DNA of 64,000 bases. Origin: Terriglobia bacterium. Lineage in GTDB: Bacteria > Acidobacteriota > Terriglobia > Terriglobales > Acidobacteriaceae. The notes beneath the pieces were generated by a model that was not told the origin of the DNA, did no database searches, and saw nothing but the letters and a program-made list of their open reading frames with translations. The position numbers and the translations under genes were made by a program. The DNA lies in contig JAIQEU010000009.1 of the NCBI GenBank assembly GCA_020073665.1, positions 62,001 to 126,000 of the forward strand, given 5' to 3'. Shown in pieces: positions 1,853-63,335 of the stretch (its first letter is position 1; each line of letters begins with the position of its first letter).

Positions 1853-2410
1853 ATGCGTGAAGCAGTTGGCCGGTTGTGGCCCGAGATCCAGTGGATCGAG
1901 AACCCGAAATTGCGCGAGCAAGTCACCCAGACCTGGATCAAGGCGCTGGAGCGCAGTCCCCTGAAGCCCGATGACCTGAACCACATTCCGTTCACGCTGC
2001 TGATTCCCAACTGCCCCATTACTTTCATGGAGCATAAGCGCTGCGTGGTGCACATTGCCCGCCAGAGCGCCGAAGCCATGCAGGAGTTCATGGGGCGTGC
2101 GCTGCCGATCAAAATGGACACGGTGGTCGCCGGCGCCATTCTCGCCGACGTTGGCAAGTTGCTCGAGTACGAACTCGGCCCCGGAGGCAAGAGCCGCCAG
2201 AGCGAACGCGGCGAAGCCTTACGCCATCCCTTCACCGGAGTGGCCTTGGCTCTGGAGTGCGGTGTGCCCGACGAAGTTTGCCACATCATCGCCGCCCATG
2301 CTGCGGAAGGAGATCTGGTGAAGCGCTCGACTGAGGCGTACATCGTGCACCATGCCGACTTCATGGCCTATCTACCGTTCAAGAATCCGAAGAACGTGAA
2401 AGTGAAGTAG
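1853..2410 (+). CDS. HD-domain-like protein with altered HD motif
   Basis: About 185 residues. A GGAGGGAGG ribosome site lies 8 bases before the chosen ATG; the frame is open upstream but without a start context. The layout (a conserved His near residue 65, ILADVGKLLEYE around residues 98-109, HPFTGVALAL, IIAAHAAEGD and HHADF) follows HDIG-type phosphohydrolases. The His of the central HD pair is replaced by Ala (LADVGK instead of LHDVGK), so metal binding may be weakened or altered. It is the first gene upstream of, and in the same direction as, the tricarboxylate cluster, 174 bases before it. A regulatory or nucleotide-hydrolysing role is possible but not shown. Confidence 0.7.
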   Translation: MREAVGRLWPEIQWIENPKLREQVTQTWIKALERSPLKPDDLNHIPFTLLIPNCPITFMEHKRCVVHIARQSAEAMQEFMGRALPIKMDTVVAGAILADVGKLLEYELGPGGKSRQSERGEALRHPFTGVALALECGVPDEVCHIIAAHAAEGDLVKRSTEAYIVHHADFMAYLPFKNPKNVKVK

Positions 2411-2584: not shown

Positions 2585-4042
2585 TTGTCCGCTAAAGAGA
2601 CTGCTGTAACCAAAGAGACGATCACCGCGAAAATGTCACGCTGGGCCGCCGGGCTCGAATACCCCCAGCTCTCGCCCGAGGCGGTGTACCAGGCCAAACG
2701 CTTCCTGCTCGATTCAGTCGGCTGTGCGCTGGGCGGATACCAGCAGCACGACGTAAAAATCGCTCTCGAGGTGCTCGACGAAATTGCCGGGCGCGGCCTC
2801 GCCACTGTCATCGGCACCGGTAAGCGCATTGATGCCGTCTCCGCCTCGCTGGCCAACGGCCTCATGATCCGCTGCATGGATTACAACGACATTTACTGGA
2901 AGCAGGATCCGTCGCATCCCTCCGACATTTTCCCGGCCGCTCTGGCCGGTTGTGAGCGCGCCAAAAGCAACGGCAAAGAACTGATTGTTGGCCTGGTCCT
3001 GGGCCACGAATTCGAGATGCGTTTCTGCGAAGCTGCCTTCCCGGGGATTCGCGAACGTGGCTGGCACCACGCTACGCTGACCGCATTCGTTTCGCCGATC
3101 GTCGCCGGGCGGGTGCTACGTCTTCCCTGGGACCAGATTCAGCATGCCATCGGTATCTCGGCCAGTCGCCAGGCTACGCTGGGCGCGGTCACCGCCGGGA
3201 AGCTGACCATGATGAAGAACACCGTTGATCCCATGGCCACGCAAAGCGGCGTGCTCGCAGCGCTGATGGCCGAGAAGGGCTACACCGGTCCCGAGCACGT
3301 GGTCGACGGCAAAGAAGGACTAACGCACTGCTTCGGCCCGGATTGGAAACTGAACCTGCTGACCGATGGGCTGGGCGAGTCCTGGCGCATCACCCAATGT
3401 GGCATGAAGTTTTTCCCGACCGAGGCTCTGACCCACGCACCGATCTCCGCGGTGCTCGACTTGGTCAAGGATAACGACCTGCGTCCCGAGAATGTGGTGA
3501 AGATCCAGATCCGTTCGCTGGCCCGCGCAGCCGATATTTTGTCCGACCCCAGCAAGTACGATCCGCACACCAAAGAAACGGCGGACCACTCGCTGCCCTA
3601 TGTGATTGCGGCTGCCCTCGCGGAACGCCAGGTGACGCCGGTGCAGTTCACCATGGAGAAGATCATGGACCCGACCATCCGCGCCCAGTTGAAGAAGGTC
3701 GAGGTGGTCGCCGATCCCGAGATCGAGAAAGTTTTTCCCGCGTTGCAACGGGTGATCGTCAACATCACAACGACCGACGGCCGCACGTTCAGCAAGCAAC
3801 TCGACTACCCCAAGGGCGACCCGCGGAATCCTCTGAGCGATGCGGAAATTGAGGAGAAGTACGCCGCGCTGGCGGAAGGCGTACTGTCGAAGGGCGCGCA
3901 GAAGAAACTGAAAGACGCCATCTGGAACCTGGACAAAATAAGCTCGGTATCGAAACTCATGGCGCTGATGAAAGCGGATGTGCGCACGAAGCGAGCAGCC
4001 GGAAGATCGAAACCGAAGTCTAAGTCAAAGCGGAAAAAATAG
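2585..4042 (+). CDS. MmgE/PrpD family dehydratase
   Basis: 485 residues, close to the usual 480-500 of 2-methylcitrate dehydratase (PrpD) and cis-aconitate decarboxylase relatives. Family features include KRFLLDSVGCALGGY near the N-terminus, the DYNDIYW--DPSHPSD segment around residue 98-112, and GLVLGHEFEMR. Members eliminate water from, or decarboxylate, citrate-like tricarboxylates in the cytoplasm. The start is a TTG preceded by AGGAG; no ATG fits better. The C-terminus is Lys/Arg-rich. It opens a cluster with a homoaconitase-like hydratase, an isocitrate-dehydrogenase-like enzyme and citrate lyase subunits, which points to a dehydration step on citrate or a citrate analogue; the exact substrate is inferred. 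Confidence 0.85.
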   Translation: MSAKETAVTKETITAKMSRWAAGLEYPQLSPEAVYQAKRFLLDSVGCALGGYQQHDVKIALEVLDEIAGRGLATVIGTGKRIDAVSASLANGLMIRCMDYNDIYWKQDPSHPSDIFPAALAGCERAKSNGKELIVGLVLGHEFEMRFCEAAFPGIRERGWHHATLTAFVSPIVAGRVLRLPWDQIQHAIGISASRQATLGAVTAGKLTMMKNTVDPMATQSGVLAALMAEKGYTGPEHVVDGKEGLTHCFGPDWKLNLLTDGLGESWRITQCGMKFFPTEALTHAPISAVLDLVKDNDLRPENVVKIQIRSLARAADILSDPSKYDPHTKETADHSLPYVIAAALAERQVTPVQFTMEKIMDPTIRAQLKKVEVVADPEIEKVFPALQRVIVNITTTDGRTFSKQLDYPKGDPRNPLSDAEIEEKYAALAEGVLSKGAQKKLKDAIWNLDKISSVSKLMALMKADVRTKRAAGRSKPKSKSKRKK

Positions 4043-4088
4043 CGCCCGGCGTCCCGGCGGCCACCAGGCGGTACGCGCTAGGAACCAT

Positions 4089-6032
4089 ATGCCCCAGACC
4101 ATCGTTGAAAAAATCGCGCAGACGCATCTTGCCGAGGGCCCCAAGCGCCCTCTCCGCACCGGAGACTTCGTCTCTATCCGCCCGCACCGCGTCATGACCC
4201 ATGACAATACTTCTGCGGTCATGAGCAAGTTCAAGGCCATCGGCGCTAAGAAAGTCCACAACTCCCAACAAATCGTGTTCACCCTCGATCACGACATCCA
4301 GAACCGAGACGACGCCAACCTGAAGAAGTATCGTGCCATCGAAGCCTTTGCCAAGGAACACGGCATCGATTTCTATCCCGCCGGTTCCGGTATCGGCCAT
4401 CAGATCATGGTGGAGCGCGGATACGTTGTCCCTGGCTCATTCGTAGTGGCCTCCGACTCTCATTCCAACATGTATGGCGCCCTGGGGGCGGTTGGCACGC
4501 CGATCGTGCGCACCGACGCTGCCGCGGTGTGGGCGACGGGCGAATTCTGGTGGCAGATTCCGCGCTCGGTGCAGGTTGTGTTCGAAGGCAAGCTCGCTGC
4601 AGGTGCGACCGGAAAAGACGTCATCATCACTCTTTGTGGTCTCTACAACCACGACGAAGTCCTCAATGCTGCCGTGGAATTTACTGGGCCCGGCGTTGCC
4701 AGCTTGTCCATGGACGCGCGCCTTTCCATCTCCAATATGACCACCGAATGGGGCCCGCTGGTGGGCTGGTTTCCCGTGGACGCCGTCACCATCAGTTACT
4801 TGAAAGGCGTTCATCAACGGCTGAAGGCATCCGGCGTAGAGCGGTTCACGGAAAACGACATCGAAAGCTGGACGAAGAGCCCGCCGCAACCCGATGCTGA
4901 CGCTGCCTACGCCGCCCGCATCACCCTCGACCTCAACCAGGTCACGCCGCACGTCTCCGGGCCCGACACGGTGCAGGTGATGGCCTCGCTCGCCGAAATC
5001 GAGAAGCAGCACGTCGCGATTCAGAAGGCTTATCTGGTGTCGTGCGTAAACTCACGCGTGGAAGATCTCGCAGCGGCAGCCGACGTCCTGCAAGGCAAGA
5101 AGGTCGCGCCGGGCGTGAAGTTCTACCTGGGGGCAGCCAGCCAGTGGGTGCAGCAGGAAGCCGAGCGTAGAGGAATTTGGCAGACTCTGCTCGACGCGGG
5201 CGCCAATCCTCTGCCCGCGGGCTGTGGCCCGTGCATTGGTCTTGGCGTCGGGTTGCTCGAACCGGGCGAGGTCGGCATCTCGGCCACCAACCGCAACTTC
5301 AAAGGCCGCATGGGATCACGTGATGCCAAGTGCTACCTGGCCAGCCCAGAGGTGGTCGCGGCCTCTGCGGTCGCGGGCTACATCCGCGGCCCTTATCAGA
5401 TGGCGGATCGCGCTCCAGCGCGGAGCTATAGAGAATTTGCCACCGGGGCAGCCGCTGAAAAAGTTGAAATCCTGCCGGGCTTCCCCGAGCGGGTGCGCGG
5501 ACGGCTGGTGTTCATGCCGCAAGACAATGTCAATACCGATGCCATTTATGGAAAGGACTACACTTACCGCGACGACATGACGCGCGAAATGATGGCCAAG
5601 GTAGTGATGGAGAATTATGATCCGCAGTTTGCGGCCAGAACTCAGGCCGGCGATGTCATTGTCAGCGGATTCAACTTCGGCACCGGCTCCAGCCGCGAGC
5701 AGGCGGTGACTTGCCTCAAGGCCAAGGGCATTCCGCTGGTCATCGCGGCCAGCTTCTCGCAAACTTATCTGCGCAACGCGTATAACAATGGGTTCCTGTG
5801 CGTGGAAGTCCCGGAACTGGTGAAGCGGTTGCGCGAGCAGTTCGCAAAGGAGATCGCGGCGAAAGATAAGACGATCATTCCCGGAGATGAAATCAACATC
5901 GACTTCACTTCCGGCGTTATCGACTGGCGCGGTGAGAAATTTGCCTTCCCCGCGCTAGGCAGTGTGCCGCAGTCGCTGGTAATCGCAGAGGGAGTGGAAA
6001 ACCTGGTCGCGAAGCGATTGGGGCTGGCGTAA
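4089..6032 (+). CDS. aconitase-superfamily hydratase, fused large and small domains, homoaconitase (Lys4)-like
   Basis: About 647 residues from ATG 4089 (MPQTIVEKIA). The N-terminal part is the Fe-S domain: SDSHSNMYGALG near residue 122, a first cluster Cys in SCVNSR near 319, and the Cys pair of GCGPCIG near 379 and 382. From about residue 465 follows the swivel domain with FNFGTGSSREQA near 530. Bacterial LeuC and LeuD are separate proteins; this fused order and the run GISATNRNFKGRMGS resemble fungal homoaconitase. The family moves water across a citrate/isocitrate-type pair using a 4Fe-4S cluster. It lies 46 bases after the PrpD gene and before a decarboxylating dehydrogenase. Whether the substrate is citrate, homocitrate or another analogue is not decided by sequence. 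Confidence 0.85.
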   Translation: MPQTIVEKIAQTHLAEGPKRPLRTGDFVSIRPHRVMTHDNTSAVMSKFKAIGAKKVHNSQQIVFTLDHDIQNRDDANLKKYRAIEAFAKEHGIDFYPAGSGIGHQIMVERGYVVPGSFVVASDSHSNMYGALGAVGTPIVRTDAAAVWATGEFWWQIPRSVQVVFEGKLAAGATGKDVIITLCGLYNHDEVLNAAVEFTGPGVASLSMDARLSISNMTTEWGPLVGWFPVDAVTISYLKGVHQRLKASGVERFTENDIESWTKSPPQPDADAAYAARITLDLNQVTPHVSGPDTVQVMASLAEIEKQHVAIQKAYLVSCVNSRVEDLAAAADVLQGKKVAPGVKFYLGAASQWVQQEAERRGIWQTLLDAGANPLPAGCGPCIGLGVGLLEPGEVGISATNRNFKGRMGSRDAKCYLASPEVVAASAVAGYIRGPYQMADRAPARSYREFATGAAAEKVEILPGFPERVRGRLVFMPQDNVNTDAIYGKDYTYRDDMTREMMAKVVMENYDPQFAARTQAGDVIVSGFNFGTGSSREQAVTCLKAKGIPLVIAASFSQTYLRNAYNNGFLCVEVPELVKRLREQFAKEIAAKDKTIIPGDEINIDFTSGVIDWRGEKFAFPALGSVPQSLVIAEGVENLVAKRLGLA

Positions 6033-6040
6033 GAATTTAG

Positions 6041-6111
6041 CCACAGAGGACGCAGAAGAAGATAGACAAGCAAGACCCAAGTTACCTCTGTGTCCTCCGC
6101 GTCCTCTGTGG
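6041..6111. repeat. 13-bp perfect inverted repeat in intergenic gap
   Basis: CCACAGAGGACGC (6041-6053) and GCGTCCTCTGTGG (6099-6111) pair perfectly around a 45-nt loop that itself contains a partial copy of the arm. It fills the gap between the homoaconitase-like gene and the dehydrogenase gene. This type of CCACAGAGGAC word is a common dispersed intergenic repeat in bacteria of this kind. Confidence 0.7.
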
Positions 6112-6144
6112 CGAAAAGCTTTTTTTCTTAGGAGAATCGCAATC

Positions 6145-7332
6145 ATGGCAAAGCATACCGTTGTCTCGATGCCCGGAGACGGCATCGGCAATCAGGTCTT
6201 ACCCGAGTCCATCCGGGTTCTGAAGGCTGTCGGGTTCGACGCCGAATACATTCACGCCGACATTGGTTGGGACTGCTGGTGCCAGCAGGGCAATGCGCTG
6301 CCCGACCGCACCATCGAGTTGCTGACCAAGCACAAGCTGGGCCTGTTCGGCGCCATTACCTCGAAGCCCAACAAGGAAGCTCAAGCCGAGCTCAAGCCCG
6401 AACTGCGTGGCAAAGGTTACGTCTACTACAGCCCGATCGTGACCATGCGGCAGAGGTTCAATCTCGATATCTGCCAGCGTCCCTGCATTGGTTTCATTGG
6501 CAATCCTCTGAATTACATTCGCAAACGCACAGACGGCGGCTTCGACGAGCCCAAGATTGACACCACCATCTTCCGCCAGGGCACCGAGGGCATGTACGCC
6601 GGCATCGAGTGGACCAATCCCCCGGACAACGTCCGCGCTGCCCTCAACAGCCATCCCAAGTTCAAGAATTTTTCCAATATTCCCGGGCCAGACCTCGCGG
6701 TGAGTTGCCGCATCATCACACGTCCGGCCGCCAAACGCATCGTCACTGCGGCATTCGAGTACGCCAAGAAGCGCGGCTTTAAAGGTGTGACCATCTGCGA
6801 GAAGCCCAATGTGGTTCGCGAAACTTCCGGCATGATGGAAGAAACCGCCAAGGAAGTGGCGAAGAATTATCCCGGCATCGCGCTCTGGTCTACTAACATT
6901 GACGCGCAGCTGATGTGGCTGAACAAAAATCCCGAAGAGTACAACGTGATTGTGGCTTCAAATCTGTTTGGCGACATTCTTTCCGATGCCTTCGCAGGCC
7001 TCGTTGGTGGCTTGGGTTTCGCCGCTTCGGGCAACATCGGGGATGATGTCGCAGTGTTCGAGCCGACCCACGGTTCAGCCCCGAAATACGCGGAGCTGAA
7101 TCCGCCGATCGTGAATCCCATTGCCATGATCCTGTCAGCAGCTATGATGGTGGACCACGTAGGCGAGCGCGACAAAGGCGATCGCATTCGGAACGCTGTT
7201 GCCGCCGTGGTCAAGGAAGGCAAGGTGCGTACCTACGACATGATGCGCATCTCAGGAGGCGCGAAGTCGATCAGCCAGGGCGCAGCCAGCACGGTGCAGA
7301 TGACAGACGCCATCCTGGCCAAACTTAAGTAA
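6145..7332 (+). CDS. isocitrate/isopropylmalate dehydrogenase family enzyme
   Basis: 395 residues. GDGIG at the N-terminus, the substrate-site segment RQGTEGMYAGIEW around residue 145 and SNLFGDILSDAFAGLVGGLG near 270-290 place it in the beta-decarboxylating dehydrogenase family, which oxidises a 2-hydroxy acid and releases CO2 to give a 2-oxo acid. The coenzyme loop reads HGSAPKYA (Lys-Tyr near 314-315), the pairing that contacts NADP phosphate in E. coli isocitrate dehydrogenase, so NADP use is likely. AGGAGA precedes the start. In the cluster it would follow the hydratase and produce 2-oxoglutarate or a homologue. Isocitrate is the simplest substrate, but homoisocitrate cannot be excluded. 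Confidence 0.85.
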   Translation: MAKHTVVSMPGDGIGNQVLPESIRVLKAVGFDAEYIHADIGWDCWCQQGNALPDRTIELLTKHKLGLFGAITSKPNKEAQAELKPELRGKGYVYYSPIVTMRQRFNLDICQRPCIGFIGNPLNYIRKRTDGGFDEPKIDTTIFRQGTEGMYAGIEWTNPPDNVRAALNSHPKFKNFSNIPGPDLAVSCRIITRPAAKRIVTAAFEYAKKRGFKGVTICEKPNVVRETSGMMEETAKEVAKNYPGIALWSTNIDAQLMWLNKNPEEYNVIVASNLFGDILSDAFAGLVGGLGFAASGNIGDDVAVFEPTHGSAPKYAELNPPIVNPIAMILSAAMMVDHVGERDKGDRIRNAVAAVVKEGKVRTYDMMRISGGAKSISQGAASTVQMTDAILAKLK

Positions 7333-7380
7333 GTAGCGTCGGCGTCTCGCCCTCCGCATTGCGGGTGAGCAAGAAACTCT

Positions 7381-8592
7381 ATGCCCTCGACAGGAACCAA
7401 AGTACGCGCCGCCGAAGCCGGTCACTACGGCAAGGACATCCGCTCCGACCTGCACGTGGCTATCGAGCCGCGCGAGGGCGGCGGCCTGGAGATCACGCTC
7501 GAGTCTCGCGTTGCTCCTTACTACGGCAATTCCATCCTGACGCAGACACGGCAGACGCTGGAAGGTCTCGGGGTAAAACACGCCCGGGTGGCGGTACACG
7601 ACGAAGGCGCTTTGCCGTTCGTGATTTCCGCCCGCATCGAGACCGCTGCCAAGCGTGCGGGTCTGGCCTCTGGCCAGAAATCGCTGCCCGACAAGGTTGT
7701 GCTGCCCGAGCCTTCGGCGCGCGATCGTCTCCGCCGGTCGCGATTGTATCTCCCCGGCTCCGAGCCCAAGTACTTCATCAACGCCAGCCTGCACGGGCCC
7801 GACGCTATCATTCTCGATCTTGAGGATTCGGTGCACCACGGCGAGAAAGACGCGGCGCGCATCCTGGTGCGCAACACCCTGCGTGCGGTCGACTTCGGCG
7901 CGTGTGAACGCATGGTGCGCATCAACCAGTTGCCCCTCGGGCTGGAAGACCTGGTCGAGATCATTCCCGAAGCGCCGGACTTGGTGCTGATCCCCAAAGT
8001 CGAACGCCCTGAGCAGGTCGCGGAAATCGATCGCATGATTGTCGAGCTAAAGGCTCGCAGCGGCATCAATCGTCCCATCTGGCTCATGCCGATTCTTGAA
8101 TCGGCGCTCGGGATCGAGTATGCGATGCCGATTGCCGCCGCCAGTCCGAACGTGGTTGCGTTAACGATCGGCTTGGAGGATTACACCGCGGACATGGGTG
8201 TGGTAAAGACCCGGGAGGGCGGCGAATCTCTGTACGCGCGCACTCGCTTGGTGAACGCGGCCAAGGCACTGGGCTTGCAGGCCATCGATTCGGTCTTCGG
8301 CGATGTCGGCGACCTGGACGGCCTGCGCCACTGGGGAGAAAATTCCCGCGCGCTGGGATTCGAAGGCATGGGCTGCATCCATCCATCGCAGATTCCGGTG
8401 ATTCATGAGGCGTTCACTCCGTCGCAGGCGGAAATCGACAAAGCCCAGAAGATTGTTGCTGCCTTCGAGGATGCCCAGCAGCGTGGACTGGGCGTGGTGA
8501 GCCTGGGTTCGAAGATGATTGATCCGCCGGTAGTGCAGCGCGCCTTGAAACTGGTGGCACGCGCGAAGGCAATGGGGAAGGTGAATTCTTAA
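7381..8592 (+). CDS. citE: citrate lyase fusion: CitD acyl-carrier domain + CitE beta subunit
   Basis: 403 residues. Residues 1-95 match the CitD acyl-carrier protein (IEITLESRV-like strand, GNSILTQTRQTLEGL, then DEGALPFVISARIETAAKRA); Ser22 in IRSD is the likely attachment point of the phosphoribosyl-dephospho-CoA group. Residues about 115-403 are CitE (LRRSRLYLPGSEPKY, IILDLEDSVHHGEKDAAR, GLEDYTADMGV, GMGCIHPSQIPVI), the citryl-ACP lyase that releases oxaloacetate. CitD and CitE are normally separate proteins of about 98 and 300 residues, so the fusion is unusual. The ligase and prosthetic-group genes citC, citX and citG are not in this window. It sits between the dehydrogenase and citF genes. 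Confidence 0.87.
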   Translation: MPSTGTKVRAAEAGHYGKDIRSDLHVAIEPREGGGLEITLESRVAPYYGNSILTQTRQTLEGLGVKHARVAVHDEGALPFVISARIETAAKRAGLASGQKSLPDKVVLPEPSARDRLRRSRLYLPGSEPKYFINASLHGPDAIILDLEDSVHHGEKDAARILVRNTLRAVDFGACERMVRINQLPLGLEDLVEIIPEAPDLVLIPKVERPEQVAEIDRMIVELKARSGINRPIWLMPILESALGIEYAMPIAAASPNVVALTIGLEDYTADMGVVKTREGGESLYARTRLVNAAKALGLQAIDSVFGDVGDLDGLRHWGENSRALGFEGMGCIHPSQIPVIHEAFTPSQAEIDKAQKIVAAFEDAQQRGLGVVSLGSKMIDPPVVQRALKLVARAKAMGKVNS

Positions 8593-8716
8593 AGTGTTGT
8601 CATCCTGAGCGCGCTGTTTTTGCGCGCGAAGGACCGGAGCGCACTGCGCGGACGCCCTCGCGCTCTTGGCGAGGGCACAGATCGCGCGTTGAGTGCGCAT
8701 CATTACTGGAATCCTG

Positions 8717-10282
8717 ATGCCAGAACGAGTTGAACTAGCGCAGAATGCCGCGGGACGCAGCGTCCCCACCATGGTCAACGGCAAGCCGCAGATTCCCTAC
8801 ATCGGAGTCGGCAAGTACCAACCGCGCGGCCGCAAGCAAGCCCCTCCCATCCGCTCCAATAAGGACTATCCCGACAGCGGCGACAAGCGCGTTCCCGACC
8901 TCGAAACCGCGTTGCGCAATTGTGGCCTGCACGACGGCATGGTGATTTCCAATCATCATCACCTGCGTGATGGTGATCGCGTTGCGCTGATGATGCTCGA
9001 GGCGGCGGCAAGAATCGGCGTCAAAGACCTGATGTGGTTTCCCAGTGCGTCTTTTCCTTCGCAGCAGAGTGCGATTGCACTCATGGAGAGGGGCGTCATT
9101 CACCACATTGAAGGCAGCATGAATGGCCCCCTGGGCGACTACTGCACCCAGGGCAAGATGCGCGGCATGGGTGTACTGCGCTCGCATGGCGGCCGCTGGC
9201 AGGCCATCCAGGATGGAGAAGTTCACATCGACATCGCGGTGATCGCTGCGCCCACAGCCGATACCTTCGGCGATGCCGATGGCTCGCACGGAAAATCCGC
9301 CTGCGGATCGCTGGGCTTTGCGTTGGCGGATTCCATGTATGCCGACCATGTCATCGTGGTCACCGACAACCTGGTGCCGTTCCCCTGCATTCCCTGGCAG
9401 ATCCAGGGCAACAACGTCGACGCCGTGGTCGAGGTCGAATCCATCGGCGATCCCGCGAAGATTGTTTCCGGCACCACCCAGATCACGCGTTCCCCCGACC
9501 GGCTGCGCATCGCCGAATTTGTGGCCCGCTTCCTGCGCGACGCCGGCATCATGAAGAACGGCTTCTCCTTCCAGGCGGGCGCGGGCGGAATCGCCCTGGC
9601 TTTCGTAGACTATCTACGCCGCATGATGAAAGAAGATGGCGTGAAGGCCCGTTTCGTGCGCGGCGGATCCACCAAGTACCTGGTCGATCTCTTGCAAGAA
9701 GGGCTCACCGACTACATTCTCGACGGCCAGACGTTCGACCTGGATGCGGTAAAGTCCATTGCCGGCGATCCGCGGCATGTACCGACCTCGCCGTTTACCT
9801 CGTACAACTATCACGGCAAGGGAAGCTTCGCCTCCATGGTCGACGCCGTGGTGTTGGGCGCAACCGAAGTGGACGTGAACTTCAACGGTAATGTAGTCAC
9901 CCACTCCGACGGCCGTCTGCTGCACGGCATTGGCGGATGGCAGAACTGCCTGGCCGCGGGATGCACCATTCTAGCCGTGCCTTCCTTCCGTGACCGCATT
10001 CCGGTGATTGTGGATGAAGTGACTACGCTGACCGGCCCCGGGGAACTGATTGATGTGGTGGTAACGGAGCGGGGAATCGCCATCAACCCGCTGCGCAAGG
10101 ACCTGCTGGATGCGGTGAAAGGCTCGAAGCTGCCAATTCGCCCTATCCAAGACATCAAAGCGGAAGTCGAGCGCATCTGCGGAGGCAAGCCCACCCGTCC
10201 GAAGCTAGGTGATCGTCCAGTCGCGGTTGTGAAGTGGGTGGACGGCACGGTGCTCGACACCGTTTGGCAAGTTAGTGCCTAG
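8717..10282 (+). CDS. citF: citrate lyase alpha subunit (citrate:acetyl-ACP transferase)
   Basis: About 521 residues from ATG 8717, chosen because a GGAA motif precedes it; a GTG 24 bases earlier lacks one. The protein follows CitF along its length (E. coli about 510): NCGLHDGMVISNHHHLRDGD, SHGGRWQAIQDGEVHIDIAVIAAPTAD, GKSACGSLGFA, SFQAGAGGIALA and the C-terminal DRPVAVVKWVDGTVLDTVWQV. CitF swaps the acetyl group on the carrier domain for a citryl group, so it needs the CitD part of the preceding fusion as partner. A 124-base gap separates them, containing a GCGCGC-rich hairpin. The stop codon falls inside an iterated intergenic word. Confidence 0.9.
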   Translation: MPERVELAQNAAGRSVPTMVNGKPQIPYIGVGKYQPRGRKQAPPIRSNKDYPDSGDKRVPDLETALRNCGLHDGMVISNHHHLRDGDRVALMMLEAAARIGVKDLMWFPSASFPSQQSAIALMERGVIHHIEGSMNGPLGDYCTQGKMRGMGVLRSHGGRWQAIQDGEVHIDIAVIAAPTADTFGDADGSHGKSACGSLGFALADSMYADHVIVVTDNLVPFPCIPWQIQGNNVDAVVEVESIGDPAKIVSGTTQITRSPDRLRIAEFVARFLRDAGIMKNGFSFQAGAGGIALAFVDYLRRMMKEDGVKARFVRGGSTKYLVDLLQEGLTDYILDGQTFDLDAVKSIAGDPRHVPTSPFTSYNYHGKGSFASMVDAVVLGATEVDVNFNGNVVTHSDGRLLHGIGGWQNCLAAGCTILAVPSFRDRIPVIVDEVTTLTGPGELIDVVVTERGIAINPLRKDLLDAVKGSKLPIRPIQDIKAEVERICGGKPTRPKLGDRPVAVVKWVDGTVLDTVWQVSA

Positions 10283-10422: not shown

Positions 10423-12921
10423 ATGGAAACTCCGCGAAAGCTAATACATTCAGTCACTTTGGCCGCTGCAGGTTGCTTTTTTCTCCTGCTTGGCGGCATC
10501 GCTGCAGCCGTTCCGGCCAGTGAGCCCGCAGCCAGGACCGAGCTCAGCAATACAGAGCTGGAGGTTTCGGCCCAACCGTCGGACGGTTCCTACCACGTAT
10601 CCGGGCGGTCAGGAGAGGGGCAGCTCTGGGCTCGCGTGGCAGCGCTGGTGGACCACCATTGGTTGCGATCGAGCGATTATCCCCGGCACGAGGTGACATC
10701 CGCTGCTTTCACTGACGGCTCCGGCGCTGGCCGGCAACTGACCATTCGTAACACTGGGTTAAGTGGCCAGCCCGATCTGCTTTGCACGCTGCGTTTGCAC
10801 GCGCAACCTGCTTATGTGGATGCAGTCGTCCGCGTCGCTAACACCACCGGCAGTCCCATCACGGTGCAGACGATTCGGCCGGTGGAGGCGGTTGGCAAGC
10901 TCATCGAGCTGGGCGGGCAGGAGGTTGCCGATCGCGTCCTTTCTGACAGCTTCAGCGAAGACCGCCCCAGCCTGGTCATCCACGACCTCGCATCCGCCCC
11001 CAACGGCACGCATCGCGGCGTCGGCAGCCAGCTCATCTATAACCGCGACAGCAAGCACAGTCTGTTCCTCGGGGCGCTGACCTCGGAAAAATGGCTCACC
11101 GTGCTGCGTTTGCACGTGGAAAATGTGGCCGGGCCTAAGATCACTGCTTATGAAGTCGATTCCACCGGGACTACCGAGCTGGCGAAAGAGAACTCGCTCG
11201 AGGGCGCACCCAAGGAGGACCAGATCGAACTCAGCCTGCCGGTCGCACCGGGAGAGGGCCTGGACTCGGAACGGATCCTCATCAGCATCGGTTCGGATTA
11301 TCACCACCAGCTCGAAACCTACGGCGCCCTCGTCCGCGACTTGCACCACGCCCGGGTGAGCGCACCCTCCGCCATGGGCTGGTGGAGTTGGACCGCATAC
11401 TACTTCGCCCTGAACCAGGGGACGGCGCTCACCAACGCACAGTTCCTGGCGGAGCACCTGAGGCACCTCGGCTACAACTTCTTCCACATTGATGAGGGCT
11501 ACCAGTACGCGCGCGGCGAGTACACAACTCCCGACGCGGCGCTGTTTCCCGACGGCATGAAGGCTTTGGAGGAGAAAATTCGTGCGCTAGGGCTTACCCC
11601 CGGAGTCTGGACAGCTCCGTTCGAGGTTTCCGAGCGCTCGTGGGTCTTTCAAAATCACAAGGACTGGCTGGTGGCAAACGCGGACGGCCAGCCCATTCAC
11701 GCCGGCTTCGTTACCCATCAGGATAAACTCTACATTCTCGACTCGACCAATCCGGGCGCTCAGGATTATTTGCGCAAAACTTACACTACGCTCACCAAGG
11801 ACTGGGGCATCCGCTACATCAAGCTGGATTTCATGGAAGACTCCGCCATCGAGGGCTACTACCACGTTCCACACACCACCGCGCTTGAGGCTCAGCGCAT
11901 CGGGTTGAAGATTATCCGCGAGGCCGTTGGCGAAGACGTGCTGCTCGACAAAGACGGTAGCCCCATGCTGAACCCGGTGGGCTTGGTGGACACCGGGCGG
12001 ATTTCCGTAGACACCGGGCACACCTTCGAGGCCTACCGCGAAGCTGCGCCCGCCATCGCCGCGCGCTACTACATGAATCGCAACTTCTACATCAACGATC
12101 CGGACGCATTCTCGGTTTCTCGGCAGACTGTCGTCGAGCAGGAGTGGCACGGCGGCAAGCGTCCTCTCACGCTCGATGAAGCCAAAGTCGCAATCTCTCT
12201 AGCCGCGGTGTCCGGAGGCATGTTCGAAATTGGCGACGACCTCCCCACTCTCTACCAGGACCCGGACCGCGTGGCGCTGGTCGAGAATCAGGACCTGATC
12301 AACATGGCCCGCCTGGGCAAGGCAGCGGTTCCGCTCGACCTGATGACCTACCTTCCCGAAGATGGAATGCCCAGCGTGTTCCTGTTGCAGGAGAGTCGTC
12401 GTCAGGCAATTCTGGCGGTGTTCAACTGGACGGAGAAAGAGCGCAAGCATGACATCGCGCTGGCTAGTCTCCCATTGCCAGTTCACGGGCCCAACCAGGT
12501 GTTTGATGTTTTTGCTTCCGCTCAGCCGACCAGCGAGAACCTCGACGTCATTTCCTTAAACCTGCCGCCACGTTCCGTGAGAGTACTTAAGATTGTGCAG
12601 GCTTCCGTGGCGCCGGGTGCACCGTCGGTGCAAGTCCATGCTCCTCAAAACGCCGAACTCGGGCAGACCGTTGGCTTTTCCGCGGAAGCCGACGCCAGTG
12701 GCGCGGCGGCGCTTGCCTATCACTGGGATTTTGGGGATGGCACCACTGCCGATGGTGCTTCCGTCAGCCACACCTTCACGCGGGCAGGTCAATTCCAGAT
12801 CCACGTGAACGCTGATGGAATTGAAGGATTGCCCTTCGAGAAGACTTTCTCGATAGCCGTGACCGGCGAAATAGACACGCGCTTCACGCCCAGCCGCAAC
12901 CGCCGTTACCAGGAGCGCTGA
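10423..12921 (+). CDS. secreted GH36/GH27-like (clan GH-D) glycosidase with C-terminal PKD domain
   Basis: 832 residues. Residues 1-32 form a signal peptide (hydrophobic stretch then AVPA). Residues about 35-300 are a beta-sandwich N-terminal domain. The TIM barrel follows with MGWWSWTAYYF near 317, DEGYQY, PDGMKALEEKIRALGLTPGVWTAPFE, and YIKLDF whose Asp469 is the expected nucleophile; an Asp near 530 (GRISVDTG) is the candidate acid/base, and NDPD occurs as in melibiases. A C-terminal beta domain and a PKD domain (about 735-820, WDFGDGTTADG---HTFTRAGQF) close the protein. It probably releases alpha-galactosyl or related sugars outside the cytoplasm. Specificity is not deducible. It stands alone, with its own promoter region and an AGGAGG-type ribosome site. 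Confidence 0.85.
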   Translation: METPRKLIHSVTLAAAGCFFLLLGGIAAAVPASEPAARTELSNTELEVSAQPSDGSYHVSGRSGEGQLWARVAALVDHHWLRSSDYPRHEVTSAAFTDGSGAGRQLTIRNTGLSGQPDLLCTLRLHAQPAYVDAVVRVANTTGSPITVQTIRPVEAVGKLIELGGQEVADRVLSDSFSEDRPSLVIHDLASAPNGTHRGVGSQLIYNRDSKHSLFLGALTSEKWLTVLRLHVENVAGPKITAYEVDSTGTTELAKENSLEGAPKEDQIELSLPVAPGEGLDSERILISIGSDYHHQLETYGALVRDLHHARVSAPSAMGWWSWTAYYFALNQGTALTNAQFLAEHLRHLGYNFFHIDEGYQYARGEYTTPDAALFPDGMKALEEKIRALGLTPGVWTAPFEVSERSWVFQNHKDWLVANADGQPIHAGFVTHQDKLYILDSTNPGAQDYLRKTYTTLTKDWGIRYIKLDFMEDSAIEGYYHVPHTTALEAQRIGLKIIREAVGEDVLLDKDGSPMLNPVGLVDTGRISVDTGHTFEAYREAAPAIAARYYMNRNFYINDPDAFSVSRQTVVEQEWHGGKRPLTLDEAKVAISLAAVSGGMFEIGDDLPTLYQDPDRVALVENQDLINMARLGKAAVPLDLMTYLPEDGMPSVFLLQESRRQAILAVFNWTEKERKHDIALASLPLPVHGPNQVFDVFASAQPTSENLDVISLNLPPRSVRVLKIVQASVAPGAPSVQVHAPQNAELGQTVGFSAEADASGAAALAYHWDFGDGTTADGASVSHTFTRAGQFQIHVNADGIEGLPFEKTFSIAVTGEIDTRFTPSRNRRYQER

Positions 12922-36164: not shown

Positions 36165-39100
36165 TTACGAGCACCCGCTCGTGCTCCCACAACTCATGCA
36201 CCGATAGCAACTCCCATTTCTCGTCATGATCGACCCGCAGAAGCTACACGTGGGGGCGTCGCCCAGGTCGATGATTCCGGAGAGCGCGTCGGCAGCGTGG
36301 GTGGAACCAGTTTCAAGTTTCGGGTTTCGAGTTTCGAGAGACGAGCCGTTCAGGTCTCCGATGCCCTCCCCTTGCGGGAGCGCGGCCGGCTTCATGCGCA
36401 GGTTCTCGAACAGCATTTGCTGCTGGCCGCTCAGGAAGCGCAGGTGCAGCCAGCGGAAGATGTAGTCCATGATCGACTTGGCGTAGCCGATGTCGGGATT
36501 GTTGGTCCAGCCGCTGGGCTCGAAGCGGGTGTGCTCGAATTTTTCGCACAGCAGTTTCAGCGGGACGCCGTGTTGCAGCGCGATCGAGACTGCGCAGGCG
36601 AAGCTGTCCATCAGGCCGCTGACCGTCGATCCTTCTTTGGCCATGGTGATGAAGATTTCGCCCGGAGTCTGGTCGCGATACAGGCCGACGGTAATGTAGC
36701 CTTCGTGTCCGCCGACGTTGAACTTGTGGGTGATGGACGCGCGCTCTTGTTCCAACTTGTGGCGCACCGCGCGCGGCGGGCCGTTCAGGTTTTCTTCCTC
36801 GCGCGACGCGGACACGGCTGTACGAGCATCTTCTTTCGTGGACATCGCGGTCTTGGTGCCGGCGGCGCTCAGCGGCTGGCTCTTCTTGCAGCCGTCGCGG
36901 TAAATTGCCACCGCCTTCAGCCCCAGCTTCCAGGCCTGCAGATAGGCTTCCATGATGTCTTCGACCGACGCGTTCTCGGGCAGGTTGACGGTCTTCGAAA
37001 TCGCGCCCGAGATAAACGGCTGCGTGGCGGCCATCATCCGCAGATGCCCCATGAAGTTGATGGAACGCGTCCCCTTCGAGGGCTTGAACGAGCAATCAAA
37101 CACCGCCAGATGCTCGTCTTTCACATCCGGCGCGCCTTCAATCGTCCCGGTCGCGTCAATGTAGCTGACAATCTTGTCGGCCTCATCGTGCGAGTATCCC
37201 AGCTTGAACAAAGCGGTAGGCACGGTATTGTTGACAATCTTAATCATCCCGCCACCCACTAGCTTCTTGTACTTAATCAGCGCCAGGTCCGGCTCGATCC
37301 CGGTAGTGTCGCAATCCATCATGAAGCCAATGGTGCCTGTAGGGGCTAACACTGTTACCTGGGAGTTGCGGTAGCCGTGCTTTTCGCCGTGGGCCAGGGC
37401 TTCGTCCCAGCATTGTTTGCTGGCTTCATAAACCGCCGTGGGAACGTTGTTCTTGTTGATGTTATTGACGCTGGCGCGGTGCATGCGGATGACGTCCAGG
37501 AACGGCTCGCGATTGATGTACCAGCCGGGGCAGGCGGCGCCGGGAGTTACTTTCTCTCCGAGATTGTTCTCAGCCAGGCCTTTTCTGGTGGGCTCGGTAA
37601 TGGGGACAAGCGGCTCGCAGAGTTCGGCGATCTTTGACGACTGCAGATACGCCTGACCGCACATGATTGCGGTTACACAGGCAGCATAGTCGCGTCCGGC
37701 GTCGGAGTCGTACGGGAGGCCCGCGGCCATCAGCAGAGCGCCCAGGTTGGCGTAGCCAAGGCCCAGCGGACGGTAATCGTGCGAGTTCTTGGCGATCATC
37801 TCGGTGGGATATCCGGCGTTGTCGACCAGGATTTCCTGCGCGGTGATGACCACGTCTACAGCGTGGCGATAGGCTTCGACGTCAAACGTCCCATTGGGAG
37901 CGAACTTCAGCAGATTCAGGCTGGCCAGGTTGCAGGCCGAGTCGTCCAGGAACATGTACTCGCTGCACGGGTTCGAGGCGTTGATGCGGGCCGTGTTTTT
38001 CGAAGTGTGCCAGCGGTTCACCGTGGTGTCGAACTGCATGCCGGGATCGCCGCACTGCCAGGTGGCCTCGGAGATGTTCTTCAGCAGATCTTTGGCTTTG
38101 TAAGTGGTAACTACGCTGCCGTCGCGAATGGATTTAGTCGAGAAATCAGTGTCGCGGACCACCGCGTACATGAAGTCGTCGGTGACGCGCACGGAGTTGT
38201 TGGCGTTCTGAAAGAAGATGGAGCTGTAGGCTTCGGAGTCGGGGCTGGAGCCGTCGTATCCAGCGGCCACCAGGGTGTGCGCCTTGGCTTCTTCTTTGGC
38301 TTTGCATTCGATGAAGTCAACGATATCGGGATGGTCGATGTTGAGGATGACCATCTTGGCGGCGCGGCGGGTCTTGCCTCCGGACTTGATGACGCCGGCG
38401 AAGGCGTCAAAACCTTTCATGAAGCTGAGCGGGCCGGACGCGGTTCCGCCGCCGGACAAGCCTTCGGTCGACGAACGCAGCGGCGACAGATTGGTGCCGG
38501 TGCCGCTGCCCCACTTGAACAGCATGCCTTCGGTCTTGGCCAGGGTGAGGATGGAGTCGAGCGAATCCTTCACCGAGTTGATGAAGCAGGCCGAACACTG
38601 CGGCGTCTTGTAGCCGGTCACGCTGAATTCGACGCGGCCCACGGCCGGATTCCAGTGCCAGTTTTGCGCGTCGGAGTTGGGCTCGATGCGATCGCAGCCC
38701 ACGTTGAACCAGACCGGCGAATTGAATGCCGCGTACTGGCGGACGAGGATGTGCACCAACTCGTCGTGGAACGTGGCACCGTCCTCGGGGCTGCGGAAGT
38801 AGCCTTGGGCTAGACCCCAGTCGCGAATGGTTTCGGCGACGCGACTTACCAACTGGCGCACGCCGGTCTCGCGCTCGGGCGTGTCTAGCGTGCCGTGCAG
38901 ATATTTGCTGGCCACGATATTGGTGGCGGTCATGGACCAGTCTTTGGGAACTTCGACGTCCTTCTGCTCGAAGATCACGTTGCCCTGGGCGTCGGTGATC
39001 TGAGCGATGCGCTTTTCCCATTCGACCTGGTCATAGGGGCTCTCGCCGGGCTTGGTGAAGAAGCGGCGGAAGGCGAGGCCGGGAGCCTTCTTCTTGCTGA

Positions 39101-39176
39101 CGGACGTAGTCGTCAACGGAGTGACGGCCGTTTGGGGGGGCGTTTGGACGTCGGTTTTTGCGCTCACGTCGGACAT
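36165..39176 (-). CDS. nrdJ: adenosylcobalamin-dependent (class II) ribonucleotide reductase
   Basis: 1003 residues. Class II features are FNSPVWFN near 150, ACFINSVKDSLDSILTLAKTEG, NPCSEYMFLDDSACNLASLNLL near residue 405 with the catalytic Cys, LAPTGTIGFMMDCDTTG, and a C-terminal Cys pair block (CSFCGSIMTRNGSCYRCMSCG) that returns electrons to the active site. The enzyme makes deoxyribonucleotides using adenosylcobalamin as the radical source. Long for NrdJ, with an ~100-residue N-terminal extension and C-terminal ribbon. Preceded after 67 bases by a small gene (39244-39780) on the same strand; a NrdR-box-like site lies upstream of both. Confidence 0.95.
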   Translation of the reverse strand: MSDVSAKTDVQTPPQTAVTPLTTTSVSKKKAPGLAFRRFFTKPGESPYDQVEWEKRIAQITDAQGNVIFEQKDVEVPKDWSMTATNIVASKYLHGTLDTPERETGVRQLVSRVAETIRDWGLAQGYFRSPEDGATFHDELVHILVRQYAAFNSPVWFNVGCDRIEPNSDAQNWHWNPAVGRVEFSVTGYKTPQCSACFINSVKDSLDSILTLAKTEGMLFKWGSGTGTNLSPLRSSTEGLSGGGTASGPLSFMKGFDAFAGVIKSGGKTRRAAKMVILNIDHPDIVDFIECKAKEEAKAHTLVAAGYDGSSPDSEAYSSIFFQNANNSVRVTDDFMYAVVRDTDFSTKSIRDGSVVTTYKAKDLLKNISEATWQCGDPGMQFDTTVNRWHTSKNTARINASNPCSEYMFLDDSACNLASLNLLKFAPNGTFDVEAYRHAVDVVITAQEILVDNAGYPTEMIAKNSHDYRPLGLGYANLGALLMAAGLPYDSDAGRDYAACVTAIMCGQAYLQSSKIAELCEPLVPITEPTRKGLAENNLGEKVTPGAACPGWYINREPFLDVIRMHRASVNNINKNNVPTAVYEASKQCWDEALAHGEKHGYRNSQVTVLAPTGTIGFMMDCDTTGIEPDLALIKYKKLVGGGMIKIVNNTVPTALFKLGYSHDEADKIVSYIDATGTIEGAPDVKDEHLAVFDCSFKPSKGTRSINFMGHLRMMAATQPFISGAISKTVNLPENASVEDIMEAYLQAWKLGLKAVAIYRDGCKKSQPLSAAGTKTAMSTKEDARTAVSASREEENLNGPPRAVRHKLEQERASITHKFNVGGHEGYITVGLYRDQTPGEIFITMAKEGSTVSGLMDSFACAVSIALQHGVPLKLLCEKFEHTRFEPSGWTNNPDIGYAKSIMDYIFRWLHLRFLSGQQQMLFENLRMKPAALPQGEGIGDLNGSSLETRNPKLETGSTHAADALSGIIDLGDAPTCSFCGSIMTRNGSCYRCMSCGSTSGCS

Positions 39177-51927: not shown

Positions 51928-54762
<2,835 letters not shown>

Positions 54763-62315: not shown

Positions 62316-63335
62316 TCAAGCGATCTCGCGGCCCACCACCGGCGCGATCAGGCGCAGTTCATCCATCAGCTTCGCAAACTGATCGGGGAAAAGCGATTGG
62401 GCGCCGTCCGACAACGCCTTGTCCGGGTCGTGATGCACCTCAATTAGCAGCGCATCTGCGCCGGCCGCCACCGACGCTCGTGCCATGGGTGCAACCTTGT
62501 CGCGCAGTCCGGTGCCATGCGAAGGATCGGAGGTCATGGGCAGGTGCGAAAGTTTCTTGATAATCGGTATTGCAGAAATGTCCAAGGTGTTGCGGGTGTA
62601 GGTCTCGAACGTCCGAATGCCGCGTTCGCACAGGATCACGTCGTAGTTCCCGCCCGACATGATGTATTCCGCCGATAACAGCAACTCTTCGAGTGTGGCC
62701 GCGATCCCGCGCTTGAGCAGGACGGGCTTCTTGATCTTGCCCAACTCGCGCAGCAAATTGAAATTCTGCATGTTGCGCGCACCCACCTGAAGGATGTCGA
62801 CGTAAGGCACCATCATCTCGATCTGCGAAATCTCCATGACTTCGCTGATTACCAGCAGGCCAAAACGGTCGCCCGCCTCCCGTAGCAATTTCAGGCCTGC
62901 CAGGCCCATGCCCTGGAAGGTGTAGGGTGAACTGCGAGGCTTAAACGCGCCGCCACGCAGCACCCGCGCGCCCGCAGCGGCCACCTGCTCCGCCACGGTG
63001 AACAGTTGCTCCCTCGATTCGACCGAGCAGGGGCCGGCCATAACGACGACTTCGGTGCCGCCAATCTTGAGCCCGTTGGCGAATTCCACCACCGTGCCCT
63101 GCGGACGAAAACTGCGTCCCGCCAGCTTGTAAGGCGCGCTGATGCGGTGGACTTCCTGCACCCCGCTGAGCACCATCAGGTTGCGGGTATCGAAATCAAT
63201 GCGCGCGCCTACCGCTGCCAGCACGGTCTGCACGGCGCCGGTGGTGCGATGCACCGAGAAGCCCATCCGCACCAGGTGTTCGATGACCTGCTGGATCTGC
63301 TCCTCGGTCGCGCTGTCTTGCATGGCAACAATCAT
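62316..63335 (-). CDS. aroF: DAHP synthase (3-deoxy-7-phosphoheptulonate synthase), AroF type with N-terminal regulatory-like domain
   Basis: 339 residues. An N-terminal ~70-residue ferredoxin-like domain ([33 protein letters not shown]) is followed by the DAHP synthase barrel with [40 protein letters not shown], and [17 protein letters not shown]. This is the typical two-domain thermostable type. It starts the shikimate pathway by joining PEP and erythrose-4-phosphate. The front domain may sense an aromatic amino acid. It stands between chorismate mutase and tyrA. Confidence 0.95.

What the first reader, a model, noticed from the sequence alone, without database searches (positions are those of the whole stretch)
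2585..10282. Five-gene tricarboxylate cluster joining PrpD, homoaconitase-like hydratase, IDH-like dehydrogenase and a citrate lyase with a CitD-CitE fusion
All five genes are in one direction with gaps of 48-124 bases. Seen in sequence: family motifs of each enzyme, the fused order large-small domain in the aconitase-like protein, and the CitD-CitE fusion with Ser22. Established: PrpD-type enzymes dehydrate citrate analogues, fungal homoaconitase only does the hydration half and leaves the dehydration to another enzyme, IDH-like enzymes make 2-oxo acids, citrate lyase splits citrate with a carrier group. Inference: the set could interconvert citrate or homocitrate-type acids with 2-oxo acids and also cleave or form them, which is not a standard TCA, methylcitrate or lysine pathway order.
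Basis: partly seen in the sequence, partly recalled or inferred. Interest (0 to 1): 0.78.

Follow-up and report, generated by a model that had tools for sequence, protein, structure and literature searches.

The report
Split-aconitase citrate-cleavage operon
A six-gene bacterial operon, found in varying form across about a dozen phyla and not described in the papers I could search, looks like a self-contained set for turning citrate-type acids into 2-oxo acids and for splitting them, with two separate enzymes doing aconitase's job and a citrate-lyase-like complex whose carrier attachment site is gone.

Summary
The five genes are real and the order is conserved. A sixth gene, an HD-family protein at 1853-2410, belongs to the cluster. 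The set recurs, in varying form, in records labelled Acidobacteria, Gemmatimonadota, Latescibacterota, Planctomycetota, Bacteroidetes, Ignavibacteriae, Anaerolineales, Myxococcota and others. Parts are swapped in a telling way: PrpD or an aconitase-like protein in one slot, the homoaconitase-like protein or a LeuCD pair in the other, and in three loci an ATP-citrate-lyase/citryl-CoA-lyase-type enzyme instead of CitDE-CitF, two of these runs starting with KorAB. This supports a module: 2-oxo acid <-> isocitrate-type <-> citrate-type acid <-> acetyl unit + 2-oxo acid. The lyase therefore probably runs on free CoA thioesters. The substrate is open: citrate is favoured by genome complements and ACL/KorAB neighbours, homocitrate by the homoaconitase profile, the split hydro-lyases and two L-piperidine-6-carboxylate dehydrogenase neighbours. 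Nothing was tested biochemically.

The parts
1853..2410 (+). HD-family protein, 185 aa, HD motif degenerated to AD (ILADVGK); sixth gene of the cluster
   Evidence: an HD-family gene is present in 71 of 98 IDH-bearing loci; HDIG TIGR00277 29.4 bits over cut-off 27.6, no Pfam match; motif counts; coordinates
2585..4042 (+). MmgE/PrpD-family protein, 485 aa, proposed citrate-type dehydratase
   Evidence: Pfam PF03972 + PF19305; below PrpD equivalog cut-offs; three active-site-like stretches strongly conserved across the loci aligned
4089..6032 (+). homoaconitase-like protein, large + small domain fused, 647 aa, proposed aconitate-type hydratase
   Evidence: TIGR00139 781.5 bits, cut-off 529.9; PF00330 + PF00694
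6145..7332 (+). beta-decarboxylating dehydrogenase of a separate clade (IDH-like), 395 aa, S-P-I in place of the ICDH S-x-N gamma-pocket motif
   Evidence: PF00180; one clade, 100/100 support; motif invariant in 95 of 95 aligned rows
7381..8592 (+). CitD-CitE fusion, 403 aa; R21-S22-D23 at the carrier position
   Evidence: PF06857 + PF03328; alignments; model mean pLDDT 91.4
8717..10282 (+). CitF, citrate lyase alpha / CoA-transferase-like, 521 aa
   Evidence: PF04223 426.5 bits; TIGR01584 472.8 bits, cut-off 501.45

Best explanation
The operon is a movable, self-contained version of the citrate limb of the TCA/reductive TCA cycle. PrpD dehydrates the citrate-type acid and the homoaconitase-like protein hydrates the aconitate-type product to the isocitrate-type acid, so aconitase is split into two enzymes. 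The IDH-like enzyme interconverts that acid with a 2-oxo acid + CO2. CitF and CitDE open or close the citrate-type acid to acetate + a 2-oxo acid. The lyase most likely works without the phosphoribosyl-dephospho-CoA group: CitF would act as acetyl-CoA:citrate CoA-transferase and CitE as citryl-CoA lyase on free CoA thioesters, the CitD remnant being structural. The likeliest substrate level is citrate/isocitrate/2-oxoglutarate, used reversibly or in the reductive direction beside the ordinary TCA-type enzymes that the own genome also encodes. Shown here: gene content, conservation, swaps, the Arg at the carrier site, absence of CitG from the genomes searched. Inferred: every reaction, the substrate, the direction, the use of free CoA.
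For: 98 loci with the IDH, of which L071 and L161 are one contig: HD 71, CitDE 56, CitF 50; PrpD+Hac 43, T2acn+LeuCD 11, PrpD+LeuCD 2; in none of the 98 PrpD with T2acn or Hac with LeuCD, so two hydro-lyase slots are filled independently. For T2acn-only Bacteroidales loci, the 4 genomes I followed up all hold a LeuC-like gene elsewhere, 3 with LeuD. An ACL/CCL-type enzyme stands in for CitDE-CitF in L172, L199 and L200; KorAB directly precedes IDH in L199, L200 and L205. Genome complements: in 9 of 22 cluster genomes no other ICDH-type PF00180 member, in 7 of those 9 also no monomeric ICDH; G430 and G070 have a citrate-synthase-family protein while their only aconitase-family members are the cluster's, plus a LeuC in G430. 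Carrier: Arg in 71 of 71 fusion rows, Ser in 3 of 3 standalone CitD. CitG: 3 of 47 genomes, exactly the three with separate citC-D-E-F genes; over cut-off in 0 of 38 further genomes, 25 of which show CitDE in the fetched stretch.
Against: Substrate: Hac scores as homoaconitase, not aconitase; a split dehydratase/hydratase is known for chain-lengthened acids (PMC3556520); the IDH lacks the ICDH S-x-N motif and groups with 18 rows that include the LeuB-type ones rather than inside ICDH; an L-piperidine-6-carboxylate dehydrogenase lies in or beside two clusters. The own genome has two citrate-synthase-family proteins and, besides the cluster's, three aconitase-family and four IDH-family proteins, one with the ICDH motif (L106), so it does not need the operon for an ordinary TCA cycle. 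Nearly all named records are MAGs, so absences may be gaps. Lyase: Ser22 itself is kept in 68 of 71 rows, which a purely structural role does not explain.
Confidence: 0.46

Rival explanations
1. Homocitrate level: the same chain one carbon longer (homocitrate, homoaconitate, homoisocitrate, 2-oxoadipate), cleaving homocitrate to acetate + 2-oxoglutarate or making 2-oxoadipate, tied to lysine or glutaryl-CoA metabolism.
For: TIGR00139 781.5 bits over cut-off; best PDB sequence match of the IDH is homoisocitrate dehydrogenase, also top by fold (1x0l Z 42.5, 41% identity, tied with an isocitrate dehydrogenase at 41.7); fungal homoaconitases only interconvert homoaconitate and homoisocitrate (PMC3556520); two L-piperidine-6-carboxylate dehydrogenases over the equivalog cut-off, in L176 (28 bases behind PrpD) and L197 (758.3 and 749.4 bits, cut-off 730).
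Against: The position that should correspond to Arg85 of T. thermophilus HICDH (placed from recall, not aligned by a tool) is Val in 94 of 95 cluster enzymes; no homoisocitrate equivalog cut-off is reached; only 2 of 80 named loci have the lysine-type neighbour; G430 and G070 have a citrate-synthase-family protein but no other aconitase besides a LeuC in G430; the only citrate-synthase-fold domain found in G424 and G425 is the cluster's own ACL-type protein.
Confidence: 0.27
2. C5 level: citramalate, citraconate, 3-methylmalate and 2-oxobutyrate, linking propionyl-CoA or 2-oxobutyrate with acetyl-CoA + pyruvate.
For: Hydrophobic gamma pocket of the IDH (I98 where the isocitrate dehydrogenase 6lky has Asn, alignment; invariant); closest folds of CitE include citramalyl-CoA lyases.
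Against: Hac scores as a tricarboxylate enzyme; PrpD-type enzymes act on tricarboxylates (recalled); the ACL-type swap points to citrate-type acids.
Confidence: 0.08
3. A citrate lyase of the classical mechanism whose carrier is charged on Ser22 by an unknown enzyme that replaces CitG/CitX.
For: Ser22 kept in 68 of 71 fusion rows within a strongly conserved AGxxGxx[VI]RSD stretch; the loop precedes a strand in the model, as Ser25 of MdcC lies at the tip of a loop between strands.
Against: Ala at that place in 3 of 71 rows (L041, L071, L161; the last two are one contig); Arg at the canonical serine position; no CitG in the 43 phylum genomes with the fusion-type lyase and none over cut-off in 38 others; no CitX in the own genome.
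Confidence: 0.2

Closest known systems
Classical citrate lyase (citCDEFXG)
   Same: CitE and CitF homologues side by side; CitD-type domain present
   Different: CitD fused to CitE; Arg at the carrier-serine place; no CitG in the genomes searched, no CitX in the own genome; no CitC match in the fusion loci
Reductive TCA cycle with citrate cleavage (ATP-citrate lyase; citCDEFXG proposed in Geobacter bemidjiensis, PMC2996986, passages)
   Same: IDH + aconitase function + citrate cleavage; KorAB and ACL-type genes join in some loci
   Different: split aconitase, separate IDH clade, carrier-less lyase, HD-family protein
Alpha-aminoadipate pathway, first half (fungi, Thermus)
   Same: homoaconitase-type hydratase with a separate dehydratase, HICDH-like enzyme
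   Different: PrpD or aconitase-like protein as dehydratase, lyase instead of homocitrate synthase; I noticed no lysine biosynthesis genes beside it but did not search for them
Itaconate/citramalyl-CoA degradation (CoA-transferase + CitE-like lyase)
   Same: CoA-transferase + CitE-type lyase working on free CoA thioesters, as proposed here
   Different: CitF-type transferase, CitD remnant, hydro-lyases and IDH attached

Membership tests
Classical citrate lyase | CitE and CitF subunits | tested here: met
   PF03328, PF04223; but under the equivalog cut-offs: citF 472.8 of 501.45, citE 258.5 of 443.4 bits
Classical citrate lyase | CitD carrier serine at the canonical position | tested here: not met
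   Arg in 71 of 71 fusion rows with the region (70 distinct); SSD in 3 of 3 standalone CitD
Classical citrate lyase | CitG (triphosphoribosyl-dephospho-CoA synthase) in the genome | tested here: not met
   own genome 0; 3 of 47 phylum genomes, all three with separate cit genes; over cut-off in 0 of 38 others, one sub-threshold match
Classical citrate lyase | CitX and CitC | tested here: inconclusive
   CitX absent from own genome, not searched elsewhere as a family; CitC seen by tblastn only in L061-L063, not searched genome-wide
Homoaconitase (TIGR00139) | profile cut-off | tested here: met
   781.5 bits against 529.9
Homoaconitase (TIGR00139) | acts on homoaconitate | not testable with these tools
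   needs enzyme assay
2-methylcitrate dehydratase PrpD | equivalog cut-off | tested here: not met
   best 94.7 bits against 950; others 80.2 against 575 and 56 against 458
Isocitrate dehydrogenase | equivalog cut-off | tested here: not met
   best ICDH model 238.8 bits against 510
Isocitrate dehydrogenase | S-x-N gamma-carboxylate motif (recalled as S113/N115 of E. coli) | tested here: not met
   S-P-I in 95 of 95 cluster enzymes; aligned with 6lky
Isocitrate dehydrogenase | catalytic Arg/Tyr/Lys/Asp set | tested here: met
   R102, R112, R144, Y151, K220, D253, D277, D281 present in 95 of 95; residue roles recalled
Homoisocitrate dehydrogenase | equivalog cut-off | tested here: not met
   268.7 against 540 and 264.9 against 500
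Reductive TCA cycle | citrate cleavage + IDH + 2-oxoglutarate:ferredoxin oxidoreductase | tested here: inconclusive
   KorAB-IDH adjacent in L199, L200, L205; a KorA fragment also in L153; KOR not searched in the own genome

The most novel reading that the evidence does not exclude
A widespread, undescribed TCA-like half cycle one carbon longer than the known one: glutaryl-CoA or 2-oxoadipate is carboxylated to homoisocitrate, isomerised to homocitrate by two separate hydro-lyases and cut by a carrier-less, CoA-dependent lyase (or an ACL-type enzyme) to acetyl-CoA/acetate + 2-oxoglutarate, or the same chain in reverse.
Probability: 0.2. Interest if true: 0.92.

Novelty: new variant of a known kind. 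Interest (0 to 1): 0.74.

Why it matters
If right, many bacteria carry a second, movable citrate limb that annotation would read as unrelated aconitase, isocitrate dehydrogenase and citrate lyase fragments. [quoted passage not shown] of the M. roseus MAG held here I saw only the IDH locus (L175). It would also show a citrate-lyase complex that has given up its covalent carrier, a step toward plain CoA-thioester lyases, and make the split of aconitase into two enzymes testable outside fungi.

Tried and rejected
Rejected: chance neighbourhood (same set in many record labels). Rejected: ordinary TCA duplicate (own genome has other citrate-synthase-, aconitase- and IDH-family proteins; the cluster IDH is a clade of its own). 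Rejected: methylcitrate cycle proper (PrpD models far from cut-off; no PrpB noticed in the cluster, not searched; 2-methylisocitrate is a tertiary alcohol that an IDH cannot oxidise, recalled). Considered: the YTYx residue of the Hac/LeuD small domain as a substrate marker; it varies (R, K, I, N, E in Hac; T, S, Q in LeuD) and decided nothing. Counted first as an ACL swap and withdrawn on recheck: L314, a second IDH locus of genome G424, has SucC- and SucD-like genes only, the match stopping before the citryl-CoA-lyase part, and saw no second citrate-synthase-fold domain in G424, so it may be plain succinyl-CoA synthetase; ACL-type loci are three. Plasmid-collection searches with Hac and IDH gave only distant IPMI or IDH relatives; the Legionella and Collinsella regions hold other IDH-family genes without the cluster. 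Paper searches listed no title or abstract start describing the cluster, but most listed papers were not opened, among them the only one; one search returned 0 papers. PMC12137691 (passages) was looked at and not used. Gene calls by longest frame were misled by antisense frames and replaced by codon-model calls. In one search, 4 of 75 HD proteins did not fit the motif pattern. Structure models came without coordinates, so distances in the IDH pocket were not measured; no family was excluded by being unlisted. Rows left out: 10 CitDE-cluster rows without the carrier region, four of them standalone CitE. In G079 the CitD part is cut off by the contig end, so its fusion is assumed.
Full report
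WHAT IS THERE. Five plus-strand frames without internal stops lie at 2585-4042, 4089-6032, 6145-7332, 7381-8592 and 8717-10282, with gaps of 46, 112, 48 and 124 bases. NCBIfam puts only the second protein over an equivalog cut-off: homoaconitase TIGR00139, 781.5 bits against 529.9. The PrpD-like, IDH-like, CitDE and CitF proteins stay below every cut-off listed. The window lies in contig C20 of a 5.4 Mb genome given as 100% complete, 1.87% contaminated.

A SIXTH GENE. An HD-family protein of 185 aa at 1853-2410 precedes PrpD. Such a gene is present in 71 of 98 IDH-bearing loci examined, so it belongs to the module. Of 75 of these proteins the motif reads HD in 20, none of them in a locus with PrpD or Hac, AD in 40, among them the window, and ID in 11; 4 did not fit the pattern. 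In most lineages the protein is therefore unlikely to be an active HD phosphohydrolase. Its role is unknown.

CONSERVATION AND SWAPS. A CitDE relative at E <= 1e-60 is in 47 of 396 genomes of the phylum. Stretches of 40 of these 47 were fetched and mapped. They are 62-91% identical and come from records titled Acidobacteria, Gemmatimonadota, Latescibacterota, Planctomycetota, Bacteroidetes, Ignavibacteriae, Anaerolineales, Myxococcota, Calditrichota, Krumholzibacteriota, Eisenbacteria, Aminicenantes and others. Over 98 loci with the IDH, window included (L071 and L161 are one contig): CitDE 56, CitF 50, PrpD+Hac 43, aconitase-like 'T2acn' + LeuCD-like 11, PrpD+LeuCD 2 (L170, L176, Anaerolineales), T2acn alone 13, Hac alone 10, LeuCD alone 5, none of these 14. 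In none of the 98 fetched stretches does PrpD stand with T2acn or Hac with LeuCD. The simplest reading is two hydro-lyase slots, a dehydratase (PrpD or T2acn) and a hydratase (Hac or LeuCD), which is which being inferred. For the T2acn-only Bacteroidales, four genomes were followed up; all four hold a LeuC-like gene elsewhere (46-50% identical), three with a LeuD neighbour, the fourth cut by its contig end. Many loci end at contig ends, so presences are lower bounds.

LINK TO CITRATE CLEAVAGE AND KOR. In L199 and L200 the run is KorA-KorB-IDH-HD-T2acn-LeuC-LeuD followed by a SucC-like protein and a SucD-like + citryl-CoA-lyase fused protein. In L172 a citryl-CoA-lyase-like protein, a 495 aa protein without NCBIfam match and a SucD-like protein follow LeuD. 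These three loci have an ACL/CCL-type enzyme where others have CitDE-CitF. L205 has KorAB-IDH-Hac; L153 has CitDE-CitF followed by an acyl-CoA-ligase-type protein and, at the end of the stretch, a KorA fragment. This is the chain acyl-CoA - 2-oxo acid - isocitrate-type - citrate-type - acetyl-CoA + 2-oxo acid. Precedent for reverse TCA flux through citrate lyase: the Geobacter bemidjiensis citCDEFXG proposal (PMC2996986, passages).

THE LYASE HAS NO CANONICAL CARRIER SERINE. In the three standalone CitD proteins of the phylum (L061-L063) the aligned columns read S-S-D, the first S being the carrier serine by the recalled Klebsiella Ser14. In the fusion-type proteins they read R-S-D (68) or R-A-D (3), that is Arg in 71 of 71 rows with the region, 70 of them distinct; in L071/L161 a stop separates the CitD part. 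Ten further rows lack the region, four of them standalone CitE. Two CitD models also put residue 22 at profile position 15. The loop precedes a strand in the predicted structure; in MdcC, Ser25 lies at the tip of a loop between strands (PMC5534430, passages). CitG is absent from the own genome. Among the 47 phylum genomes it is in 3, exactly those with separate CitC, CitD, CitE, CitF and a CitX-CitG protein (Pfam in L061; tblastn in L062 and L063). Four of the 47 (G097, G193, G292, G208) match only outside the CitD part or, in G208, from residue 91 on, so 0 of 43 genomes with the fusion-type lyase have CitG (in G079 the CitD part is cut off). Of 38 further cluster genomes, 25 with CitDE in the fetched stretch, 0 have a CitG match over the cut-off and one a sub-threshold match. 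CitX is absent from the own genome. The best structural matches of CitDE are lyases solved with free CoA thioesters, malyl-CoA lyase and CLYBL. Hence the proposal: CitF transfers CoA from acetyl-CoA to the acid, CitE cuts the thioester. Against a purely structural carrier remnant: Ser22 itself is kept in 68 of 71.

THE IDH. Cluster enzymes form one clade (22 of 22 rows, 100/100 support, stem 2.12 changes per site) against 37 other IDH-family rows. They group with 18 rows that include the LeuB-type ones, the root being a midpoint only; characterised homoisocitrate dehydrogenases were not in the tree. Where ICDH has S-x-N, all 95 aligned cluster enzymes have S-P-I; N120, L122 and N123 are invariant and R126 is in 94 of 95. 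The model's best matches are homoisocitrate, isocitrate and isopropylmalate dehydrogenases at nearly tied Z (42.5 to about 39 over the 50 rows shown), so the fold does not decide the substrate.

WHICH ACID. For citrate: among 22 cluster genomes, 9 have no other ICDH-type PF00180 member (type judged from the pocket motif, unfetched rows by position), and 7 of these 9 have no monomeric ICDH either (present in G414 and G400). Of the 7, G070, G411 and G430 have a citrate-synthase-family protein, G081 and G418 none, G424 and G425 only the cluster's ACL-type protein. In G070 and G430 the only aconitase-family members are the cluster's, plus a LeuC in G430. For homocitrate: the TIGR00139 score; the finding that fungal homoaconitases do only the hydration half (PMC3556520, abstract and passages); and an L-piperidine-6-carboxylate dehydrogenase over the equivalog cut-off in two clusters (L176, 28 bases behind PrpD; L197, within the cluster's span on the other strand). 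The own genome has two citrate-synthase-family proteins and, besides the cluster's, three aconitase-family proteins (open frames of 953, 697 and 475 aa) and four IDH-family proteins, one with the ICDH and one with the LeuB-type motif, so there the operon adds something to an ordinary TCA cycle. I put citrate first at a little under one half and homocitrate at about one quarter.

NOVELTY. I saw no paper describing the cluster in the listings; most listed papers were not opened and most subscription journals are not held. [quoted passage not shown] The M. roseus MAG held here shows the IDH in L175 without the rest nearby, while Melioribacter sp. (L174) and Melioribacteraceae CHB1 (L211) have IDH-HD-Hac-PrpD-CitDE-CitF. 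I file it as a new variant of a known kind: a citrate limb with split aconitase and a carrier-less lyase.

Noticed in passing
window 1853-2410 and 74 relatives: HD-family protein of the cluster has lost the motif histidine in most lineages (AD 40, ID 11, HD 20, 4 not fitting, of 75); role unknown.
   Followed up: partly
L176:13584-15038 (+) and L197:4375-5829 (-): L-piperidine-6-carboxylate dehydrogenase (ALDH7 type) inside or right behind the cluster in two unrelated groups, a hint toward lysine/2-aminoadipate metabolism.
   Followed up: partly
L051, L053, L054, L056: AT-rich Acidobacteriota stretches carry CitDE-CitF without the other genes, preceded by a conserved ~200 aa protein with no Pfam or NCBIfam match for the one tested (L051).
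   Followed up: no
L172:15866-17350: Between the citryl-CoA-lyase-like and SucD-like genes lies a 495 aa protein with no NCBIfam match; its end holds a cysteine-rich stretch that looks ferredoxin-like.
   Followed up: no
L050:7293-7622 (-), L069:6776-7063 (+): Related small proteins of ~100 aa next to CitF in two loci; the L069 one is a GYD-domain protein.
   Followed up: no
L062:2369-4297: An aconitase-family protein of 643 aa stands upstream of a classical citrate-lyase gene set.
   Followed up: no
G424 (L199 and L314): One genome holds two cluster-type IDH loci; the second (L314) has SucC/SucD-like genes and LeuC/LeuD pieces beside it.
   Followed up: partly
window 10423-12921: Melibiase-type glycosidase with a C-terminal PKD domain directly downstream of CitF on the same strand; probably unrelated.
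   Followed up: no
window 36168-39176, 51931-54762, 62319-63335 (all -): Ordinary neighbours: class II ribonucleotide reductase, UvrA, DAHP synthase.
   Followed up: no
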